64,000 nucleotides of DNA from Ostreibacterium oceani. GTDB lineage: Bacteria; Pseudomonadota; Gammaproteobacteria; Cardiobacteriales; Ostreibacteriaceae. Both the position numbers and the translations under genes were made by a program. The notes beneath the pieces are model-generated. The model was not told where the DNA came from. It was given only the letters and a program-made list of their open reading frames with translations, and did no database searches. Position 1 is the first letter of the stretch; each line of letters opens with the position of its first letter. Below are positions 14,889 to 27,448 of this stretch, piece by piece. The stretch spans positions 124,001-188,000 of the forward strand of contig NZ_WHNW01000003.1 in the NCBI RefSeq assembly GCF_009362845.1, in the 5' to 3' direction.

Positions 14889-15887
14889 ATGGATAACCTA
14901 ACTAATTTAAAGGCGATTTTGCATTCCAAAAGAGCTAATATTTATTACCTCGAAAAATGCCGAGTCATGCAAAAAGATGGGCGTGTACTCTACCTGACTG
15001 AAGCAGCAAATGAAAATCAGTATTGGAACATTCCTATTGCGAATACCACCTGTCTGTTATTAGGGACAGGCACTTCAATTACTCAGGCTGCGATGCGTAT
15101 GATTGCTTCAGCGGGCGTGTTGGTTGGTTTTTGTGGTGGCGGTGGAACCCCGTTATTAATGGCAAATGAGATTGAGTGGTTAACTCCGCAAAGTGAATAC
15201 CGTCCTACTGAATATATGCAAGGCTGGATGTCGTTTTGGTTTGATGAAGTACGTCGTTTTCAAGCTGCCAAGGAACTTCAGCAAGCACGAATTACTTATC
15301 TGTTGCAGGTGTGGAGCAAGGATAAAGCCCTGAAAGCCGAAGGTTTTGTCGTTGAAGATATCTTGATTCAAAATGCATTACAGCAATACGGCGATAAAAT
15401 GCAGCTAGCCACCAGCACCAACCAATTACTATTAATCGAAGCAGAGCTGACTAAACAGCTATACAAATACGCAGCCCAGACAACTAAGCACCAGCGATTC
15501 ACACGGCAACACGATGCGGTTGATTTAGCCAATACGTTTTTAAATCATGGAAACTACCTTGCCTATGGATTAGGCGCAACGACATTGTGGGTATTAGGTA
15601 TACCCCATGGTTTTGCGCTGATGCACGGCAAAACACGTCGCGGCGCACTGGTTTTTGATGTGGCGGATTTAGTAAAAGATGCACTGGTGTTACCGCTGGC
15701 ATTTATTTGCGCCAAAGAAAACGCGACAGAACAAGAGTTTCGTCAACAATGCTTACAGGCCTTTGCGGATCACAAAGCGCTTGATTATCTGTTTAATCAA
15801 GTCAAATCAGTGGCATTGTCACACCATCAATGCAGTGATGATGAGGCAACAGAGGCCCCGTCTAGTGAAATAGATAATCGGAAATAG
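14889..15887 (+). CDS. cas1: CRISPR-associated integrase Cas1, type I-F
   Basis: Cas1 is the integrase that, with the Cas2 domain of Cas2-3, inserts new spacers at the leader end. The 332-aa sequence matches the I-F subfamily: K-A-I-L-H-S-K-R-A-N near the start, FCGGGGTPLL, then a helical C-terminal domain. The metal-binding triad is visible as Glu in LLIEAELTKQ (about 184), His in IPHGFALMHG (about 240) and Asp in VFDVADLVKD (about 256-260). A strong AGGAGG site precedes the ATG. The last 20 residues are an acidic tail. It appears intact. Confidence 0.96.
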   Translation: MDNLTNLKAILHSKRANIYYLEKCRVMQKDGRVLYLTEAANENQYWNIPIANTTCLLLGTGTSITQAAMRMIASAGVLVGFCGGGGTPLLMANEIEWLTPQSEYRPTEYMQGWMSFWFDEVRRFQAAKELQQARITYLLQVWSKDKALKAEGFVVEDILIQNALQQYGDKMQLATSTNQLLLIEAELTKQLYKYAAQTTKHQRFTRQHDAVDLANTFLNHGNYLAYGLGATTLWVLGIPHGFALMHGKTRRGALVFDVADLVKDALVLPLAFICAKENATEQEFRQQCLQAFADHKALDYLFNQVKSVALSHHQCSDDEATEAPSSEIDNRK

Positions 15888-15911: not shown

Positions 15912-16883
15912 ATGAGTAAATCTGATAAAAAACAATTGCTAAACCGCATACTCAAAAATCGCCGTTACCCTGTGCCAATGCGTGATTTGACGAGAGCCTT
16001 GGAATGTACCGAGAGAACAGTATATCGCATCATCGAGTCTTTGAGCGTTGAGCTTAATGCGCCGATTGAATATGTTGAAAACCAGGGTTATCAAATTCGC
16101 CAAGACGAGGCAGCGTTAATAGAGTTGCCAGGCTTATGGATGACAGTCGATGATATGCAGTCAATGCTGGTTGTGCTCAATTTATTAAAAAAACTACATG
16201 GCGGCATGATACATGGCAGTATTGATGTATTTGAAGAAAGCATCCAAGCACAGCTAAAATCATTAAATATTGATAGCCAAAAATTGATTACTGCGCTAAA
16301 AATAGTGCCGATTGGTCACAAAATGGTCGTGTATTCGACTTATCAAACCATTTTAACGGCGTTATTGACAGGAAAACAAATAACTATCGGATACGATACC
16401 TACAGTGGTGAGCAATCAAACCGTGTCATTAGCCCACTAACGCTGGTTTACTATCGTGAAAACTGGTATGTTGATGCGTGGTGTCATCTCAGAAACGAAT
16501 TGAGAACGTTTCAAATTGCACGTATTTCAAATATCGAGTTATTAACACAGCAGTCAAAACAGATTTCAGAGCAAGCATTGGCACAATACTTTACGCAAAG
16601 CTATGGTGTGTTTTCAGGACGTGCAAAATACACCGCCTGTTTGCGGTTTTCAGCAGCCATTGCGCATGAAGTATCAAAACAAATTTGGCACCCAGACCAA
16701 CAAAGCCAATGGCAAGGTGATGATTATCTGTTGTCCGTGCCGTACTCAGACGACAGAGAGCTACTCCAAGATTTATTAAAATTATCGCCTCACGTTTACG
16801 TGCAGTCCCCAGATTGTTTGCGCGAAAAGCTGCTTGAGAAACTGACTATGGCATTACAAAAAAACGCTTCAGCGGAAAAATAG
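15912..16883 (+). CDS. HTH-WYL transcriptional regulator inserted in the cas operon
   Basis: This 323-aa protein has an N-terminal winged helix-turn-helix (residues about 5-60, L-T-R-A-L-E-C-T-E-R-T-V-Y-R-I-I) and a WYL domain around residues 140-210. The diagnostic segment is YYRENWYVDAWCHLRNELRTFQIARI. A C-terminal WCX-like part follows. WYL proteins often bind nucleic acid or nucleotide ligands and several are linked to CRISPR or phage defence. It lies 24 bp after cas1 and 81 bp before cas3, where canonical I-F operons have nothing. The inference that it regulates the cas genes rests on position and on the inverted repeat just downstream. Confidence 0.85.
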   Translation: MSKSDKKQLLNRILKNRRYPVPMRDLTRALECTERTVYRIIESLSVELNAPIEYVENQGYQIRQDEAALIELPGLWMTVDDMQSMLVVLNLLKKLHGGMIHGSIDVFEESIQAQLKSLNIDSQKLITALKIVPIGHKMVVYSTYQTILTALLTGKQITIGYDTYSGEQSNRVISPLTLVYYRENWYVDAWCHLRNELRTFQIARISNIELLTQQSKQISEQALAQYFTQSYGVFSGRAKYTACLRFSAAIAHEVSKQIWHPDQQSQWQGDDYLLSVPYSDDRELLQDLLKLSPHVYVQSPDCLREKLLEKLTMALQKNASAEK

Positions 16884-16964: not shown

Positions 16965-19900
16965 ATGATGGTTACCTTTGTCTCGCAATGCGAAAAAAAC
17001 GCACTCAAGCGCACACGCCGTGTATTAGATGCCTTTGCCAATCGTATCGGGGACAACGTGTGGCAAACCGTCATCACGCAAGAAGGGTTAGCCGCAGTCA
17101 AGAAATTGCTTCGCAAAACCGCCAGTAAAAGCACGGCAGTCAGTTGCCACTGGATACGCGGTAGAGTACGGACAGAATTACTCTGGGTGGTTGGAAATAA
17201 ACGAAAATTTAATAGTGAGGGGATGGTGCCGGTGAATAGGACGCAGCGTAATTTGTTAAAATCTCAGATTGAAAGTGATTGGCATTATCTACCACTAATC
17301 AAATCATTAGTAGCTTTGGCGGCATTGCTGCATGATTGGGGTAAAGCAACCGCGTTGTTCCAACAGAAATTAAGTCCAAAAAATAAACAGAAATTCAAAG
17401 GGGATCCAATACGACATGAATGGATTTCAATATTGTTGTTAAAAGCACTAGTTCAGGCAACAAAAACTCAAACAGACGAGGAATGGTTGCTGAAATTAAA
17501 ATCGGGAGATATAGATGAAAAATTGCTTAAACAATATATTAAGAGAAATGAATCCAATCCATTTAGTAATTTACCCCCTACAGCAAAGTTAGTTGCATGG
17601 TTGATCGTGTCGCATCATAGATTGCCGTTACCGGCTAATGACCGTTGGAATGATTATATTTCAGAAGGAGCAGAGACCTTAGATATTATGCTTGCTCGAA
17701 TCTCACTAAATTGGGGGTATGAGAACCGTTTTGATGAAACTGAGTACAATGAACGAATAGCGGCATGTTTCGATTTACCAAAGGGCTTGCTAGTAAATTC
17801 TAAGCCATGGATGAAGCAGGTGAAAAAATGGTCCGTACGTTTATTAGATTGCCAGAAACAAGCCGAAAATACTATTCAAGATGGGAGTTATCGCATTGTT
17901 TTAAATCATGCTAGGCTTTGTTTGATGCTAGGAGACCATTATTACTCTTCGCAGGATGCACATCAAAAATGGCAGGGACAATCAGGTTTATTCGCGAATA
18001 CAGATCGTTCGACTAATACACTGAAGCAAAAGTTGGACGAACATCTAGTTGGCGTTGCCAAACATGCATTGAATACTGCACATTTGCTTCCATCATTTGA
18101 GAAAGAACCACCTTGCGCTGAAGACCTTAACAATTTGAAAGCACGAAGTCCGTCTCAATTTAGATGGCAAGATGTAGCGGTTGAGAAAATCAATTCTTGG
18201 CAAAAAGAAAATTTCAAAAAAGACGATTTAAAATATGGTTTTTTTGCTGTTAATATGGCGAGTACAGGCTGTGGGAAGACCTTTGCTAACGCTAAAATCA
18301 TGCGAATTCTCTCGCATGATTCAGAAAGTCTGCGTTATATTTTGGCGCTTGGATTGCGTACTTTGACTTTGCAAACAGGAGATGAGTATCGTCAACGTGT
18401 GGGATTAGATAATAGTGAGCTTGCTGTGTTAATTGGCTCTCGTGCAGTTATGGAGCTGCATAAACAAATCGAGATCGACAGCGAGGAAAATAGCTATGAA
18501 AACAGTGGGTCATTGTCACAAGAGGCTTTGTTAGAAGAAGAAATTGATTTCGAGTGTGCAATACCAGAGGATGGCTTGAGCACAGTGTTAACTTGCAATC
18601 GAGATAAAAAATTTTTATATGCGCCAGTGCTTGTCGCGACAATCGATCATTTAATGGCTGCCACAGAGACAAAGCGAGGTGGACGTTATATTCTACCGAC
18701 GTTACGACTTATGTCTTCTGATTTAGTGATAGACGAAATTGATGATTTTACTGGCGATGACTTAATTGCTATTGGCCGTCTCATTCATTTAGCAGGCATG
18801 CTGGGGCGAAAAGTAATGATATCATCGGCAACAATACCACCATTTCTAGCCGAAGGGTACTTCAAAGCTTATCGAGATGGTTGGGCGTTGTATTGTAAAA
18901 GCCGTACAGCTAACCCAACAATTGGTTGCGCATGGATAGATGAATTCAGCACCCAAGTTTTTAGTAATGACGAAATGGATGTGTCGAAGTCAGTTTTAGA
19001 GAGCTATAGACCTCAGCACACTAAGTTTATTGATAAAAGAGTAAATGAATTAAAGCGACAACCAGCGAAACGAAAAGCAATTATTTCGGATTGCCACATG
19101 ATAATTGATCAATATAAGAATCAAAATCATAAAGATAAGGAAGTACTAGAAAGTAAGCAATCGGCTTATTTCAATGTGGTCGTGAAAAGTATATTGAATT
19201 TGCATGAAGCACATAATTTTACTGATAAAATGACTAATCTTAAAGTTTCTTTTGGTGTGGTTCGTGTCGCTAATATCCCTCCTTGCATTGAGCTGACTAA
19301 ATATTTATTAGGAATAGATTGGCCAGATGATACAGAAATAAGAGTTATGGCCTATCACAGTCAGCAAGTGCTATTGATGCGTTCAGTACAAGAGTGGCAT
19401 CTGGATCAGGTATTAACCAGAAAAGAAGAGGAAAGAAATCCTCCAGAGGCATTAAATAATCCGATTGTACGGGCGCATTTAAACACGGCTAAAAAAAAAT
19501 CGAATATAAAAAATGTTGTTTTTATATTGGTAGCTACACCAGTTGAAGAGGTTGGGCGTGATCATGATTTCGATTGGGCGGTGATTGAACCATCATCTTA
19601 TCGCTCTATAATTCAATTAGCTGGTCGAGTTCGCCGTCATAGGCAAGGCGAGGTTAACCAAGCTAATGTGGCATTATTGCAATATAACTTGAAAGGTGTT
19701 AAAAATTATCATGATGAAAATGCAGTCGTATTTAGTAGACCAGGATTTGAAGACTTTATCAGACTTAAGAGTCACGATTTAAGGCAATTAGTCGATGTGG
19801 ACGCCATCTATGAAAGGTTAGATGCGGTTCCGAGAATTCAATGTTTGTCTCATTTAAATATTAATTATTTGCGTTCAATTAATCGGGCAGATAGTTTGGT

Positions 19901-20210
19901 TGAGTTAGAACATGCAGCAACTTGGTTTTGGTTGGCAAATTACAAGATGAGCGGTCAGGGTGCACAAATAAGCCCAGCGACCTTGCAAGGATGGTTAAAT
20001 CATCATTGGTTTTTATGTGCGCTGCCACAAGCTCTTTCTCCATTTAGGAAAGGGCAGCCGAGCTTGAAAATATTTTTAGTTTTCAATGAATCGCAACAAG
20101 TCAGTCAATTTTGCGAAAAAGATAATCAAGGCTATCCAGTTGAGCGTGAGAATTTGTTAAGTATTCAGCGTGTTGAATTAAGTGAACGAGCAAAAGTAGG
20201 TTATGGTTAA
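16965..20210 (+). CDS. cas3: Cas2-Cas3 fusion, type I-F nuclease-helicase (C terminus in another frame)
   Basis: Cas2-3 is recruited by the Csy complex to unwind and degrade target DNA and also serves adaptation with Cas1. The first 100 residues are the Cas2-like domain. The HD nuclease motif LLHDWGKA is at about 121-128, with SHHRLPLP as a further His pair. Helicase motifs are Walker A STGCGKT (about 434), DEAD-type VIDEIDD (about 587), SSATIPP, and motif VI QLAGRVRRHRQG. The frame stops at 20210 after VELSERAKVGYG, but a continuation of about 50 codons lies in the -1 frame immediately after, so the protein seems to be cut short by one missing base. RBS is weak. Confidence 0.93.
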   Translation: MMVTFVSQCEKNALKRTRRVLDAFANRIGDNVWQTVITQEGLAAVKKLLRKTASKSTAVSCHWIRGRVRTELLWVVGNKRKFNSEGMVPVNRTQRNLLKSQIESDWHYLPLIKSLVALAALLHDWGKATALFQQKLSPKNKQKFKGDPIRHEWISILLLKALVQATKTQTDEEWLLKLKSGDIDEKLLKQYIKRNESNPFSNLPPTAKLVAWLIVSHHRLPLPANDRWNDYISEGAETLDIMLARISLNWGYENRFDETEYNERIAACFDLPKGLLVNSKPWMKQVKKWSVRLLDCQKQAENTIQDGSYRIVLNHARLCLMLGDHYYSSQDAHQKWQGQSGLFANTDRSTNTLKQKLDEHLVGVAKHALNTAHLLPSFEKEPPCAEDLNNLKARSPSQFRWQDVAVEKINSWQKENFKKDDLKYGFFAVNMASTGCGKTFANAKIMRILSHDSESLRYILALGLRTLTLQTGDEYRQRVGLDNSELAVLIGSRAVMELHKQIEIDSEENSYENSGSLSQEALLEEEIDFECAIPEDGLSTVLTCNRDKKFLYAPVLVATIDHLMAATETKRGGRYILPTLRLMSSDLVIDEIDDFTGDDLIAIGRLIHLAGMLGRKVMISSATIPPFLAEGYFKAYRDGWALYCKSRTANPTIGCAWIDEFSTQVFSNDEMDVSKSVLESYRPQHTKFIDKRVNELKRQPAKRKAIISDCHMIIDQYKNQNHKDKEVLESKQSAYFNVVVKSILNLHEAHNFTDKMTNLKVSFGVVRVANIPPCIELTKYLLGIDWPDDTEIRVMAYHSQQVLLMRSVQEWHLDQVLTRKEEERNPPEALNNPIVRAHLNTAKKKSNIKNVVFILVATPVEEVGRDHDFDWAVIEPSSYRSIIQLAGRVRRHRQGEVNQANVALLQYNLKGVKNYHDENAVVFSRPGFEDFIRLKSHDLRQLVDVDAIYERLDAVPRIQCLSHLNINYLRSINRADSLVELEHAATWFWLANYKMSGQGAQISPATLQGWLNHHWFLCALPQALSPFRKGQPSLKIFLVFNESQQVSQFCEKDNQGYPVERENLLSIQRVELSERAKVGYG

Positions 20211-20362
20211 TGCGTGATTATGATCAATGTTGTTTAAATTTAGCTGACCAAAAGGAGCTTAATCAAAGTTTGATTTCACTGCGCTATGGCGAGTTAAATT
20301 TTTATTTTTATGAAGGAAATAAATATGGCTATAACGACCAACTGGGGTTGTTTAAACTGTAA
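20210..20362 (+). pseudogene. Displaced C-terminal end of Cas3 (or a 50-aa coupled ORF)
   Basis: A 50-codon reading frame starts at an ATG overlapping the cas3 stop (TAATG) and ends at 20362. This frame is open upstream to 20186, where it reads LWLMRDYDQCC. With one extra A in the AAAA run at 20192-20195, cas3 would continue smoothly through R-L-W-L-M-R-D-Y and SLRYGELNFYF to a final D-Q-L-G-L-F-K-L. From memory this resembles the usual end of I-F Cas3 (a RYG motif and a final LGF), but I could not align it. Alternatives are a genuine small coupled gene, programmed -1 frameshifting, or a sequencing error. Confidence 0.6.
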
Positions 20363-20381: not shown

Positions 20382-20457
20382 TAAATAAGCTGCCTATGCG
20401 GCAGTGGATATCTATAGGTAGACAAATTATTTCTAAGCTGCCTATGCGGCAGTTTTT
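20382..20457 (-). CRISPR. Minus-strand mini-array: two degenerate I-F repeats around a 20-nt spacer
   Basis: On the minus strand, two copies of the I-F repeat core ACTGCCGCATAGGCAGCTTA occur (complement of 20430-20457 and 20382-20409). The core differs from the main array by one loop base (T for C). The first copy keeps the full 3' handle CTTAGAAA but has AAAA in place of the 5' GTTC; the second has degenerate ends on both sides. Between them is the 20-nt sequence TAATTTGTCTACCTATAGAT, shorter than the 32-nt spacers of the main array. Both hairpins should be recognised by Csy4. This is the layout of a cas-regulating guide RNA, not of a normal array. Confidence 0.85.
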
Positions 20458-20459
20458 AT

Positions 20460-20488
20460 ATTATAGCGCAAACTTTGAAACTTAGTAA
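20460..20488 (-). promoter_or_regulatory. Minus-strand promoter for the mini-array
   Basis: Reading leftwards there is a TTACTA -35 (complement of 20483-20488), a 17-bp spacer and a perfect TATAAT -10 (complement of 20460-20465). Transcription would begin about 7 nt later, right at the first degenerate repeat, so the transcript would be almost entirely repeat-spacer-repeat. Confidence 0.7.
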
Positions 20489-20510
20489 TCTTGCATCGCT
20501 TTTAATGCTA

Positions 20511-20532
20511 AATTATAGTAAAACTAATTAGG
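20511..20532 (-). promoter_or_regulatory. Candidate self-target (protospacer plus PAM) of the mini-array guide
   Basis: On the minus strand this site reads CC followed by TAATTAGTTTTACTATAATT. Against the mini-array spacer it matches 14 of 20 positions: 1-5, 7, 8, 10, 13-17 and 20. CC is the type I-F PAM. Mismatches at 6, 12 and 18 fall on positions that are flipped out and unread in type I complexes. The site ends 2 bp before the csy1 -35 box. Partial pairing of this kind is expected to allow binding and repression without cleavage. Confidence 0.7.
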
Positions 20533-20534
20533 TT

Positions 20535-20563
20535 TTGATAAAATGGGTGGGCTGTGTTAATAT
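20535..20563 (+). promoter_or_regulatory. Promoter of csy1-csy2-csy3-csy4
   Basis: TTGATA (20535-20540), a 17-bp spacer and TAATAT (20558-20563) form a good sigma-70 promoter 33 bp before the csy1 start. An AAAGAGGAG ribosome site lies between. It implies that the Csy complex genes have their own promoter, separate from cas1-WYL-cas3. Confidence 0.7.
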
Positions 20564-20595: not shown

Positions 20596-21900
20596 ATGAT
20601 TGATGATGCAATAACGACTTTTCTTGATGACAGAAAAGATGCATGGCTAAAAAAGAATATCAGTTCGTCTATGAACGAAGAAGAAATAACAGAAAAAGAG
20701 TTGGAATGTGAGACTATTTTTACGTTGCAGCATTGGCTACCAAATGCGGCTAAAAGAGCAGGGCAAATGTCGATGAGCTCTCACCCATGTACATTTAGCC
20801 ATCCCAGTTCTCGCAAAAATAAAAATGGCTATGCAACTTCTGTAATTGCCAATAGTAAACGTTCTAATGATGGGTTTCTAAGAAGTGGGAATGTAACAGT
20901 AGAGCTAGATGCTTTAGGTAATGCTGCCGCATTGGATGTGTACAAATTTTTGACGCTTAAAATGAATGACGGTATGAGTTTAATTGAGCATATTGAAAAA
21001 GATACTGAATTAGCCGTAAAGTTGCTCACTTTATCAAATGTTAATGAGGAGTTAAATTATTTAGCACTTAAAAAAGATTTTCTAGAAATGGTGTCAGTAG
21101 GTAGTGAAATAGTAACTAGCTCTAAAATAAAACAAGTGTTTTTTCCGATTGAGAAAGATTGGTCGGAGAATAAATCATATAATGCAGAATCCTATCATCA
21201 ACTATCAATTTTAACGGCCTCAGGTATTTTATTTGAATTAAGGAATCGTCTAGATGCAATGCGGTTTGGTGATGAAATAAAATTTGCTAGGGAAAGCAAG
21301 AGAATGAACCAAAAACACCCTGGATTTAAAGAAATCTACAATCTAACGACAATTGGTTACGGTGGGACAAAACCGCAAAACATTAGTGTGTTAAATAATA
21401 AAAATGGAGGTAAAGCCCATATGTTTATGTCAGTGCCTCCTAAATTAAAACAACGTGACATTCATTTTCCTCAGACTGACTTTTTTCGTCAGACTGTGCA
21501 TTATTTTCAATGCAAAAATCAGTTCTACCAGTTACATAAGTTGTATAGTCGTGAAAATAATAACAAGCTTATCCGTGATATGCGAGATGAGTATTATCAA
21601 AGCATAATTGATCATATTATTGAAAAAATGTGGCAGATTCGTAGTGTGGCTACAGAGCAATTCAGCACTAATGAAAATCAATTACCTTTAGTGCAAAAAA
21701 TTTGGTTATGTGACCAACTGGAATATTCTGAGCAGCGCGAAAAAATGGATGACTGGCTCGTTGAAATAGAAGATTCAATTGCAAAATTTTTATTTCATGG
21801 ATATGAAAAGGTACTAGGTAAAAATGCTATTAAGCTTAGTGATGAAGAATATAAACATATGCACAAAAAAGTGTTTTCAAATAGAGAGGCATTACGATGA
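20596..21900 (+). CDS. csy1: Csy1 (Cas8f), large subunit of the type I-F surveillance complex
   Basis: Csy1 forms a dimer with Csy2 at the foot of the crRNA complex, holds the 5' handle and reads the CC PAM. The 434-aa sequence has the family start (aspartate-rich, then EEEITEKELECE and LQHWLPNAAKRAGQMS), the THPC-like SSHPCTFSHPSS stretch, the NGYATSVI segment, and NLTTIGYGGTKPQNIS, a conserved Csy1 block containing the GGTKPQN motif. AAAGAGGAG precedes the ATG. The stop overlaps csy2 (ATGA). Confidence 0.94.
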   Translation: MIDDAITTFLDDRKDAWLKKNISSSMNEEEITEKELECETIFTLQHWLPNAAKRAGQMSMSSHPCTFSHPSSRKNKNGYATSVIANSKRSNDGFLRSGNVTVELDALGNAAALDVYKFLTLKMNDGMSLIEHIEKDTELAVKLLTLSNVNEELNYLALKKDFLEMVSVGSEIVTSSKIKQVFFPIEKDWSENKSYNAESYHQLSILTASGILFELRNRLDAMRFGDEIKFARESKRMNQKHPGFKEIYNLTTIGYGGTKPQNISVLNNKNGGKAHMFMSVPPKLKQRDIHFPQTDFFRQTVHYFQCKNQFYQLHKLYSRENNNKLIRDMRDEYYQSIIDHIIEKMWQIRSVATEQFSTNENQLPLVQKIWLCDQLEYSEQREKMDDWLVEIEDSIAKFLFHGYEKVLGKNAIKLSDEEYKHMHKKVFSNREALR

Positions 21901-22835
21901 TAGGGGAAGTTAAAAAGCTATTAATTATTCCACATATTAAAATCCATAATGCCAATGCGCTATCGAGCCCGTTTACTATTGGTTTTCCGGCAATGACTGC
22001 TTGGTTGGGTGCGGTGCATGCAATGCAAAGGAAGTTGTGCGAAAGAGGTGTGCCTGCTAACTTTTTAGCGGTTGGAGTTGTTTGCCATGATATGGAATTA
22101 CAAACTTATAAAGGAGAAGGCGACTTTGTGCATTCAATAATTGGTACAGCTAACCCATTGGATAAGACGGGCGCCAGATCACCATTTATTGAGGAGGCTA
22201 GATGCGATATCGAGGCAAGTTTAGTTATTCAGTACGATAACATAACAATAGACGAGCGTGAAAAATTATTAGATAACATTGACCATTTGTTGCATTCACA
22301 GATGAAAATTGCCGGAGGTGATATCAATGGCTTTCAACCCCCATTTTGTATAAATACGCAAGAGGATGATGAAAAAAGTTTGAGGGATTTTCGACGTTTA
22401 CTGATGCCTGGTTATGCCATATTTGAGCGACGCGATCTCATGATAGATGCCATGGAAAAGGGTGCGGATGCATTAGATGCCTTGATAGAGTATTTAGCGA
22501 TTCATCATTGCTGCGATATAGATGATGAAGGCAATGTTACTTGGTCTAGTCATCGTAAATCGCTGGATAATAAACCTGCAGGATGGATAGTTCCAATTGC
22601 TACAGGATTTCATGGTATTAGCGAGTTGGGTGAAGCAAAAAATCAACGAGACTCGGATACCTCGCATCGATTTGCGGAATGTATTGTTACATTAGGTGAA
22701 TTTAGAATGCCACACCGCATACGATTTGTAGAAGATATGCTATGGCGCTATAGCACTGATGGTGATTTATATTTGTGCCAACAAAAGGCACAAACTACTC
22801 AAAAAACAAAGTATTCATCAGAATCAGAATTTTAA
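21897..22835 (+). CDS. csy2: Csy2 (Cas5f), type I-F surveillance complex
   Basis: Csy2 caps the 5' handle of the crRNA together with Csy1. The family opening is visible: LLIIPHIKIHNANALSSPFTIGFPAMTAWLG, a typical Csy2 block that includes the N-A-N-A-x-S-S-P-x-T-x-G-F-P pattern. AGGDINGF and LMPGYAIFERRDL follow in the middle of the protein. The 312-aa length is normal. The start overlaps the csy1 stop. The last 12 residues are Gln/Thr/Ser-rich and not conserved. Confidence 0.94.
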   Translation: MIGEVKKLLIIPHIKIHNANALSSPFTIGFPAMTAWLGAVHAMQRKLCERGVPANFLAVGVVCHDMELQTYKGEGDFVHSIIGTANPLDKTGARSPFIEEARCDIEASLVIQYDNITIDEREKLLDNIDHLLHSQMKIAGGDINGFQPPFCINTQEDDEKSLRDFRRLLMPGYAIFERRDLMIDAMEKGADALDALIEYLAIHHCCDIDDEGNVTWSSHRKSLDNKPAGWIVPIATGFHGISELGEAKNQRDSDTSHRFAECIVTLGEFRMPHRIRFVEDMLWRYSTDGDLYLCQQKAQTTQKTKYSSESEF

Positions 22836-22866
22836 TTTTTATTAATCAAGTTAGAGGAGAGTTATT

Positions 22867-23892
22867 ATGGCTAAAAAAGAAAATATTGCATCTGTACTGG
22901 CATTTGAAAAGAAATTGGTGTCTAGTGATGCTTTTTTGTATGGTACTACTTGGGAAAATCGTGAACAAATATCCCCATTAACATTACAGGAAAAATCTGT
23001 TAGAGGCACTATTTCGAATCGGCTGAAAAGTGCAGTCAAAAACGACCCAGCTAAACTCAATGCAGAGGTAGAAAAGCCCAATTTACAACGAGTTGATTCT
23101 TGTAATCTAGGTATGGAGCAAGATACGCTAAACCTAAAGTTTACTGTTAAGGTTTTAGGTGGTATTGCCAAACCATCTGCTTGTAACAATGCATTATTCA
23201 AACAAAGTTATAGCGCTGCCGCAAATGCTTATATAGGCAATCACGGTTTTGTAGAATTAGCGCGTCGTTACGCTGCTAATATTGCCAATGCCCGTTTTTT
23301 ATGGCGTAATCGTGTCGGTGCAGAAATGATTGAAGTACATGTGAATGCTCAAAACAGGCAGGTTAATAAATCATATATGTTTAACGCTACAGAATACCCT
23401 ACTCGGCATTTTGATTATGATGATGACTCCATTAATGAGCTAGCAAACTATATTGCGGAAGCATTAGCAAGCAAAGATGATTTTTTAATGCTGGATATTA
23501 ATTGTTTTGCCAAGGTTGGTAAGTCGCAAGAAGTTTACCCGAGTGAAGAGTTAGTGCTAGATAAAGGTAGAGGTGAAAAAAGTAAAATCCTATATGATGT
23601 CAAGGGTATTGCGGCCATGCATTCTCAAAAAATTGGTAATGCACTCCGAACGATTGATACATGGTACCCAGATTTCACGAATCCAGAAACAAGTGCAGGG
23701 CCTATTGCAATAGAGCCATATGGTGCTGTCACTAATTTAGGTAAAGCATATCGAACACCTGCTGACAAACAAGATTTTTATACTTATTTTGATGTCTGGG
23801 CGCGTGGGGAAAAGCTAAATCGAATCGAAGATGAGCATTATGTGATGGCAACACTGGTGCGTGGTGGTGTCTTTGGAGAGAGTGATAAATAG
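22867..23892 (+). CDS. csy3: Csy3 (Cas7f), backbone of the type I-F surveillance complex
   Basis: Csy3 polymerises (six copies in characterised complexes) along the spacer part of the crRNA. The 341-aa sequence carries SVLAFEKKLVSSDAFLYGTTW, then LGGIAKPSACNNALF, RYAANIANARFLWRNRVGAE and the C-terminal DFYTYFDVW, all typical of the family. A TTAGAGGAG ribosome site stands 7 bp before the ATG, strong as expected for the most abundant subunit. Confidence 0.95.
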   Translation: MAKKENIASVLAFEKKLVSSDAFLYGTTWENREQISPLTLQEKSVRGTISNRLKSAVKNDPAKLNAEVEKPNLQRVDSCNLGMEQDTLNLKFTVKVLGGIAKPSACNNALFKQSYSAAANAYIGNHGFVELARRYAANIANARFLWRNRVGAEMIEVHVNAQNRQVNKSYMFNATEYPTRHFDYDDDSINELANYIAEALASKDDFLMLDINCFAKVGKSQEVYPSEELVLDKGRGEKSKILYDVKGIAAMHSQKIGNALRTIDTWYPDFTNPETSAGPIAIEPYGAVTNLGKAYRTPADKQDFYTYFDVWARGEKLNRIEDEHYVMATLVRGGVFGESDK

Positions 23893-23900
23893 AGGTGTCT

Positions 23901-24527
23901 ATGAAATATTATCTAGAAATCACCCTATTGCCAGATGCAGAAGCAAATCTTGGTTTCCTTTGGTATAAAGTTTTCCAGCAGATACATATTGCTTTGGTGG
24001 ATAATAAGATAGGAGAAAACCAATCGGCTGTCGCGCTGTCAATTCCGGGGTATCAATCCGGTGATTCCAATGACAAGGCTTTCCCTTTAGGTAGTAAACT
24101 GCGTTTGTTTGCTGAATCTGAAGCCATATTGGCTAATTTGGATATACAAAAATGGCTAAATAGATTACGCGATTATGTGCAAGTTGCTTCAATAACAGCA
24201 GTGCCAAATTCGGTTTCTTATGTTGGTTTTAGGAAAAAAAGGGTGAAAGGCAAAAAAAGGCTTGAGCAGTCGCTTCATAAAAAGGCCAAGCACCTTTCGA
24301 ATAAATTTAACCTCGACTTTGACAAGACCTTGCAAATGCTAGAAAAGAAACATTCGTTTAATGAAGAAAAGTTGCCCTTTGTACATATAGAAAGTCAATC
24401 TAGTGTAGCTGATAAGCACAAGCCTAGATTTAAGTTGTTTATTGAAAAAGTAGAATCGGCAGCACCTCAACAAGGGATATTTGACTGCTACGGTCTATCC
24501 AAAACGGCAACGGTGCCTTGGTTTTAA
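23901..24527 (+). CDS. cas6f: Csy4 (Cas6f), crRNA-processing endoribonuclease
   Basis: Csy4 cuts the pre-crRNA at the base of each repeat hairpin and stays bound. The start at 23901 (MKYYLEITLLPD) is preferred because AGAGGTG lies just upstream. With this start the conserved His falls at residue 29 (Q-Q-I-H-I-A-L-V), the same number as the catalytic His29 of Pseudomonas Csy4. The active-site Ser region is HIESQSS, the Arg/Lys-rich RNA-binding helix is RKKRVKGKKRL, and the end CYGLSKTATVPWF is canonical. It appears fully functional. Confidence 0.95.
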   Translation: MKYYLEITLLPDAEANLGFLWYKVFQQIHIALVDNKIGENQSAVALSIPGYQSGDSNDKAFPLGSKLRLFAESEAILANLDIQKWLNRLRDYVQVASITAVPNSVSYVGFRKKRVKGKKRLEQSLHKKAKHLSNKFNLDFDKTLQMLEKKHSFNEEKLPFVHIESQSSVADKHKPRFKLFIEKVESAAPQQGIFDCYGLSKTATVPWF

Positions 24528-27139: not shown

Positions 27140-27448
27140 TCACTTTAACGACGCATCGGGTCGTTGCTCGACCAATTTTTTAACATCCTCGCCGCCGTAT
27201 ATTTGCTCGGCTTGCCATAGGTCATACTTCATTTGTCCACGTAGCCACGACTCGGCACTACCACCAAACGCCGTTGCTAACTTTATCGCGGTTTTGGGTG
27301 TGATGCCACGTTTGCCGTGGATAATTTCAGACAACGCAGCGCGCGTCATACCGAGTGCTGTGGCGGCATCGGTGATGCTTAGCCCCAATTCGTCTAGATA
27401 TAACCCCTTTAGCACTTCGCCAGGGTGGGGCGGATTGTACATACGCAT
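27140..27448 (-). CDS. higA: HigA-type antitoxin
   Basis: This is a 102-aa HTH_XRE antitoxin of the HigA family, which binds its toxin and represses the operon. The family opening N-P-P-H-P-G-E-V-L and the helix-turn-helix (S-I-T-D-A-A-T-A-L-G-M-T-R-A-A-L-S-E-I-I-H) are clear, as are TPKTAIKLATAFGGSAESWL and LWQAEQ. The start at 27448 (MRMYNPPHPGE) has GAAGAGGAAA upstream. It lies after its toxin gene with 25 bp between them, the usual higB-higA order, and 55 bp beyond the CRISPR array on the opposite strand. Confidence 0.92.
   Translation of the reverse strand: MRMYNPPHPGEVLKGLYLDELGLSITDAATALGMTRAALSEIIHGKRGITPKTAIKLATAFGGSAESWLRGQMKYDLWQAEQIYGGEDVKKLVEQRPDASLK

What the first reader, a model, noticed from the sequence alone, without database searches (positions are those of the whole stretch)
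20382..20563. Mini-CRISPR guide predicted to repress the csy operon of its own I-F system
Seen: on the minus strand two degenerate copies of the I-F repeat flank a 20-nt spacer-like sequence, TAATTTGTCTACCTATAGAT, directly behind a TTACTA-17-TATAAT promoter. Also on the minus strand, CC followed by TAATTAGTTTTACTATAATT (20532 down to 20511) matches it at 14 of 20 positions, including seed positions 1-5, 7 and 8. The target ends 2 bp before the TTGATA -35 box of the csy1 promoter. Known: type I-F uses a 5'-CC PAM, every sixth guide base is unread, and short or mismatched guides allow binding without Cas3 cleavage; cas-repressing CreR-type guides are described for other CRISPR-Cas types. Inference: Csy4 processes this RNA and the Csy complex shuts off its own operon, so loss of the complex (for example by anti-CRISPR proteins) would raise cas expression.
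Basis: partly seen in the sequence, partly recalled or inferred. Interest (0 to 1): 0.92.

Follow-up and report, generated by a model that had tools for sequence, protein, structure and literature searches.

The report
CRISPR guide repressing its own cas promoter
Next to its CRISPR genes this bacterium carries a miniature CRISPR unit whose short guide matches the promoter of those same genes, so the CRISPR machinery very probably switches itself down; the same arrangement recurs in dozens of related systems and belongs to an already described class of self-regulating guides.

Summary
Two degenerate type I-F repeats flank a 20-nt guide (20382-20457, minus strand). A CC-flanked target sits 2 bp before the csy1 -35 box and matches 13 of the 15 read bases among guide positions 1-17. 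No shuffled guide reached that (0 of 4000), nor did any of the system's own 41 array spacers.

I surveyed 121 type I-F loci. All 31 that have such a repeat pair also have a CC-flanked target at 13-15 of 15, although guide and target sequences differ between loci. A looser search adds 6. Positions 1-5, 7-11 and 13-17 match 95%; the unread positions 6, 12 and 18 match at background. In 24 of 27 comparable loci the PAM directly abuts a -35-like box, usually about 60 bp before csy1, as here.

The Acinetobacter I-F CreTA layout differs: its target lies about 200 bp upstream, with an RNA-toxin mini-ORF in between. The window lacks that toxin.

It is a new member of a known kind. From memory, Shmakov et al. 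2023 predicted such mini-arrays widely and tested one from type I-F1. No RNA or repression data exist for this strain.

The parts
20382..20409 (-). psi-R2: second degenerate I-F repeat. Hairpin intact; 3' tail degenerate (CTTATTTA instead of CTTAGAAA). Would supply the 20-nt 3' hairpin of the processed guide.
20410..20429 (-). 20-nt guide (psi-spacer) TAATTTGTCTACCTATAGAT
20430..20457 (-). psi-R1: first degenerate I-F repeat. Hairpin and CTTAGAAA 5' handle intact; 5' flank degenerate. Would supply the 8-nt 5' handle.
20460..20488 (-). mini-array promoter: TATAAT (20465-20460), 13 nt before the psi-R1 stem, with a weak TTACTA (20488-20483) 17 nt upstream; the -10 position is conserved in relatives
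20511..20530 (-). guide target (protospacer strand) TAATTAGTTTTACTATAATT; matches the guide at 13 of 15 read positions among 1-17
20531..20532 (-). CC PAM of the target (GG on the + strand)
20535..20563 (+). csy1 promoter TTGATA-17-TAATAT; the -35 box lies 2 bp from the PAM, a position conserved in relatives
20596..21900 (+). csy1 (cas8f), first gene of the presumed regulated operon
21897..24527 (+). csy2 (21897-22835), csy3 (22867-23892), csy4/cas6f (23895-24527): the rest of the operon, encoding the complex that would carry the guide
16965..20210 (+). cas2-3 (Cas3f), upstream of the regulatory intergenic region; its C-terminal about 50 aa continue in another frame to 20362

Best explanation
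This is a CreR-type mini-array that autorepresses the csy (cas8f-cas5f-cas7f-cas6f) operon. Transcription from the -10 box beside psi-R1 yields a short RNA. Csy4 cuts both hairpins to give a 48-nt guide (8-nt handle, 20-nt spacer, 20-nt hairpin). The Csy complex loaded with it binds the CC-flanked target beside the -35 box of the csy1 promoter, forming an R-loop of about 17 bp, and blocks RNA polymerase. Because pairing stops near position 17 and the spacer is 20 nt rather than 32, no complete R-loop forms and Cas2-3 is not recruited to cut. Loss of free Csy complex (little Csy, many competing crRNAs, or anti-CRISPR proteins) would raise csy expression. Shown by sequence: the anatomy, the match, the PAM, the promoter geometry and the covariation. 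Inferred: transcription, processing, binding, repression and the response to anti-CRISPRs.
For: Match far above shuffles, random 20-mers and native spacers. 31 of 31 paired-repeat elements in the cas3-csy1 region, defined without reference to any target, have a CC target at 13/15 or better; among the 16 possible dinucleotide PAMs the counts are CC 31 and all others 0-2. The per-position pattern over 34 non-duplicate loci shows the I-F 6-nt periodicity: 95% at read positions, background at 6, 12 and 18-20. Cognate pairs score 13-15; non-cognate pairs average 6.0, with 0.5% at 13 or more. The PAM abuts a -35-like hexamer in 24/27, against 14% at other GG sites, p about 6e-18; most targets end 61-68 bp before csy1, the window's at 65. 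A -10-like hexamer lies about 13 nt before psi-R1 in most relatives. The parts kept are those a processed guide needs: psi-R1 handle 7.8/8 against psi-R2 tail 4.0/8 (psi-R1 was partly selected for its handle). The published I-F CreA has the same 8+20+20 nt mature form and represses transcription through the Csy complex with a similar match pattern (PMC10097628). No creT mini-ORF is present.
Against: Two read positions, 9 and 11, are mismatched here, at the low end of the family. In the Acinetobacter CreA, breaking pair 9 abolished function, so repression may be weak in this strain. The mini-array's -35 box is poor. Four other 13/15 CC sites occur in the genome. No RNA or expression data exist. 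The window's own family has no second genome in the collection, so conservation was tested only across families.
Confidence: 0.88

Rival explanations
1. It is the antitoxin half (creA) of a CreTA module as in Acinetobacter: the target promoter drives a small RNA toxin, and csy1 is only a neighbour.
For: Same genes, same intergenic position, same 20-nt psi-spacer and CC PAM as the published Acinetobacter I-F creA (PMC10097628).
Against: The scan recovers the published-type creT in LoGeW2-3 (mini-ORF with a ribosome site) and a candidate in ANC 7970, but no ribosome-site-plus-mini-ORF in the window. The target ends 65 bp before csy1, against 202-203 bp in the CreTA loci. In the window the PAM abuts a csy1 -35 box, as in most other loci.
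Confidence: 0.05
2. It is a decayed relic: a once functional regulatory mini-array whose guide is now too mismatched to act.
For: The match is 13/15 read positions, the lowest class in the survey, with mismatches at 9 and 11. The last 50 aa of cas2-3 are out of frame, so the system may be decaying.
Against: Both hairpins, the CTTAGAAA handle, the PAM, seed positions 1-5, 7 and 8, and positions 13-17 are intact; csy1-4 are intact. Other loci also score 13/15. The cas3 frameshift lies in an A-run and could be an assembly error.
Confidence: 0.06
3. Chance: two repeat relics whose spacer happens to resemble an A+T-rich promoter.
For: The region is A+T-rich, and four other 13/15 CC sites exist genome-wide.
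Against: 0 of 4000 shuffles reach the score within the intergenic region. The same arrangement with matching guide-target changes recurs in 31/31 paired-repeat elements.
Confidence: 0.01

Closest known systems
CreR, cas-regulating RNAs from mini-CRISPRs (Liu et al. 2023, Cell Host Microbe)
   Same: A mini-array guide with limited complementarity to the promoter of its own cas operon; autorepression by its own effector, relieved by crRNA competition or anti-CRISPRs (described).
   Different: Shown for types I-B, I-E and V-A, not I-F; here repression is inferred only.
CRISPR-derived regulatory mini-arrays, including an experimentally tested type I-F1 one (Shmakov et al. 2023, NAR 51:8150; existence confirmed by citation, content from memory)
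   Same: Standalone repeat pairs whose spacer partly matches the promoter of cas genes, cas8 in particular, in type I loci including I-F1.
   Different: None known in kind. The full text is not held, so whether this genome or the PAM-at-the-35-box geometry was reported could not be checked.
CreTA of Acinetobacter type I-F (PMC10097628)
   Same: Mini-array in the cas3-csy1 intergenic region, minus strand, 20-nt psi-spacer, CC target, 48-nt mature guide, natural mismatches at positions 6, 11 and 18.
   Different: CreA represses a toxic RNA (creT); the target is about 200 bp from csy1 and downstream of the creT promoter. No creT in the window.
Autoregulation of type II-A Cas9 by a natural single-guide RNA (Workman et al. 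2021, cited)
   Same: An effector guided by a natural partial-match RNA to its own cas promoter; repression relieved by anti-CRISPRs.
   Different: Uses a long-form tracrRNA (own knowledge) and Cas9; a different system and a different RNA origin.

Membership tests
CreR-type cas-regulating mini-array | Repeat pair inside or beside the cas locus, distinct from the immune array | tested here: met
CreR-type cas-regulating mini-array | Spacer partly complementary to a PAM-flanked site in the promoter of its own cas operon | tested here: met
CreR-type cas-regulating mini-array | Guide and target conserved together in related loci | tested here: met
CreR-type cas-regulating mini-array | Guide RNA transcribed and processed by Cas6/Csy4 | not testable with these tools
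   hairpins and handle intact and a -10 box present, but no RNA data
CreR-type cas-regulating mini-array | Represses cas transcription through the effector complex | not testable with these tools
   needs a reporter assay
CreTA (type VIII toxin-antitoxin), I-F type | creA-like mini-array in the cas3-csy1 intergenic region with a CC target | tested here: met
CreTA (type VIII toxin-antitoxin), I-F type | creT mini-ORF with a ribosome site downstream of the target promoter | tested here: not met
   positive control LoGeW2-3 found

The most novel reading that the evidence does not exclude
Autorepressing mini-arrays are a default feature of type I-F1 loci that have a cas3-csy1 gap: about 35 of 49 such loci here. 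They follow one fixed design, in which the PAM sits directly against the csy1 -35 box and the guide is functionally 17 nt. The guide and promoter therefore co-evolve as a matched pair independent of their actual sequence. Part or all of this may already be in Shmakov et al. 2023.
Probability: 0.35. Interest if true: 0.55.

Novelty: new member of a known kind. Interest (0 to 1): 0.42.

Why it matters
If the guide works as predicted, the Csy complex senses its own free level. Surplus complex shuts the operon, while competing crRNAs or anti-CRISPR proteins reopen it, which limits autoimmunity and counters phage inhibitors without any protein regulator. The comparative set gives a direct natural read-out of which guide positions matter for binding without cutting in type I-F (1-5, 7-11 and 13-17, but not 6, 12 or 18-20). 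That is useful for designing I-F gene silencing. For this genome it is one more instance of a described principle.

Tried and rejected
Considered the upstream TTGCAT-17-TATAGT pair, whose -10 lies inside the target, as the true csy1 promoter. Considered creT: searched both strands for ribosome-site-plus-mini-ORF and the published creT core, and found none in the window. A second 13/15 match at 27386 (+) and a near-identical one on contig C13 looked at first like a second target; the window one appears to lie within coding sequence, probably a HigA-type antitoxin gene read by eye and not confirmed by a family search, so it was treated as background. A single-sequence Cas3 scan of genome contigs found nothing; the Csy1 alignment worked. 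The key NAR 2023 paper is not held.

Full report
What is there. The window carries a complete type I-F cas locus on the + strand: cas1 (14889-15887), a WYL-domain regulator (15912-16883), cas2-3 (16965-20210), csy1 (20596-21900), csy2, csy3, csy4 (to 24527) and then a CRISPR array of about 41 repeats. Between cas2-3 and csy1, on the minus strand, lie two degenerate repeats (20457-20430 and 20409-20382) around a 20-nt guide (20429-20410). Both carry the same single loop change from the array repeat, CTGCCGCATAGGCAG instead of CTGCCGCACAGGCAG, and no other place in the 2.18-Mb genome carries that variant. The hairpins fold as expected. A perfect TATAAT stands 13 nt before the first hairpin, with only a weak -35.

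The target. A CC-flanked site at 20532-20511 (minus strand) matches the guide at 14/20. Of the six mismatches, three fall on positions 6, 12 and 18, which type I-F complexes do not read (established knowledge). Scored on the 15 read positions of 1-17 it is 13/15. 4000 shuffled guides, about 4000 random window 20-mers and the 41 native array spacers reached at most 12, 12 and 9 in the same region. Genome-wide, four other CC sites reach 13/15, so the case rests on place and conservation.

Conservation. I collected cas3-csy1 regions from 121 type I-F loci: same-order and same-class genomes, 80 named genome contigs found with a Csy1 alignment and plasmids. A search that asked only for two hairpins at mini-array spacing plus an 8-nt handle found 31 loci with such a pair. 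All 31 had a CC target at 13/15 or better, and no other dinucleotide PAM gave more than two. A looser search added six more (one a duplicate sequence), all in loci with an intergenic gap, and none in the loci that lack both a gap and a paired element. Among 49 loci with a gap of at least 150 bp, about 35 have the element. They include Thalassotalea, Colwellia, Shewanella, Legionella, Oceanisphaera, Fangia, Amphritea, Vibrio, Methyloprofundus and Sulfurimonas genomes, and three same-order relatives of the window (L013, L015, L018).

The match pattern. Over 34 non-duplicate loci, positions 1-5, 7-11 and 13-17 match 485/510. Positions 6 and 12 match 23/68, and position 18 is 11/34, all at background. 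Guides and targets differ from locus to locus but stay matched: cognate scores are 13-15, non-cognate mean 6.0. Because loci were kept only if they scored at least 11 of 15, the read positions are somewhat enriched by selection; positions 6, 12 and 18-20 were not used for selection.

Geometry. Aligning the loci at the target shows a -35-like box 0-2 bp after the PAM in 24 of 27 minus-strand, non-Acinetobacter loci, against 14% of other GG sites in the same regions, often followed by a -10-like box at 17 bp. Targets cluster at 61-68 bp before csy1; the window's is at 65. The published Acinetobacter CreTA arrangement is different: target at 202-203 bp and an RNA-toxin mini-ORF between (PMC10097628). 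The same scan finds the LoGeW2-3 mini-ORF and none in the window.

Mechanism. Shown here: anatomy, match, PAM, promoter geometry, conservation. From published work on the I-F CreA: an 8+20+20-nt guide made by Csy4 and used by the Csy complex to repress transcription without Cas3 (PMC10097628). Inferred for the window: the guide represses csy1-4 by occluding the -35 box, and relief follows loss of free complex. The mismatch at position 9 is a caution, because pair 9 was essential in the Acinetobacter CreA; three other surveyed loci also mismatch there.

Novelty. CreR autorepression is described for types I-B, I-E and V-A. From memory, Shmakov et al. 2023 (NAR; cited, text not held) predicted such mini-arrays against cas8 promoters and tested one from type I-F1.

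Noticed in passing
20195-20362: The last 50 aa of Cas2-3 (MRDYDQ...YNDQLGLFKL) are in a different frame from the rest; the frames appear to break at an A-run near 20195. Either an assembly error or a truncated Cas2-3.
   Followed up: partly
15912-16883: A WYL-domain transcription regulator sits between cas1 and cas2-3, a possible second regulator of the locus.
   Followed up: no
27386-27405 (+): Another CC-flanked 13/15 match to the guide, apparently inside a HigA-type antitoxin gene beside the array; a near-identical site is on contig C13. Treated as background.
   Followed up: partly
L010 and L011 (cas3-csy1 gap): Two same-order relatives have a single repeat-like hairpin (CTGCTGAAAAAGCAGCTTAGCGG) just before csy1 with no partner; meaning unknown.
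   Followed up: no
L058, L070, L015, L018, L116: In these loci the target lies on the + strand rather than the minus strand, so the complex would sit on the promoter in the opposite orientation.
   Followed up: no
L134 (Psychrobacter plasmid pA11BP5): A plasmid-borne I-F locus with a guide matching 15/15 read positions of its csy1-upstream target.
   Followed up: no
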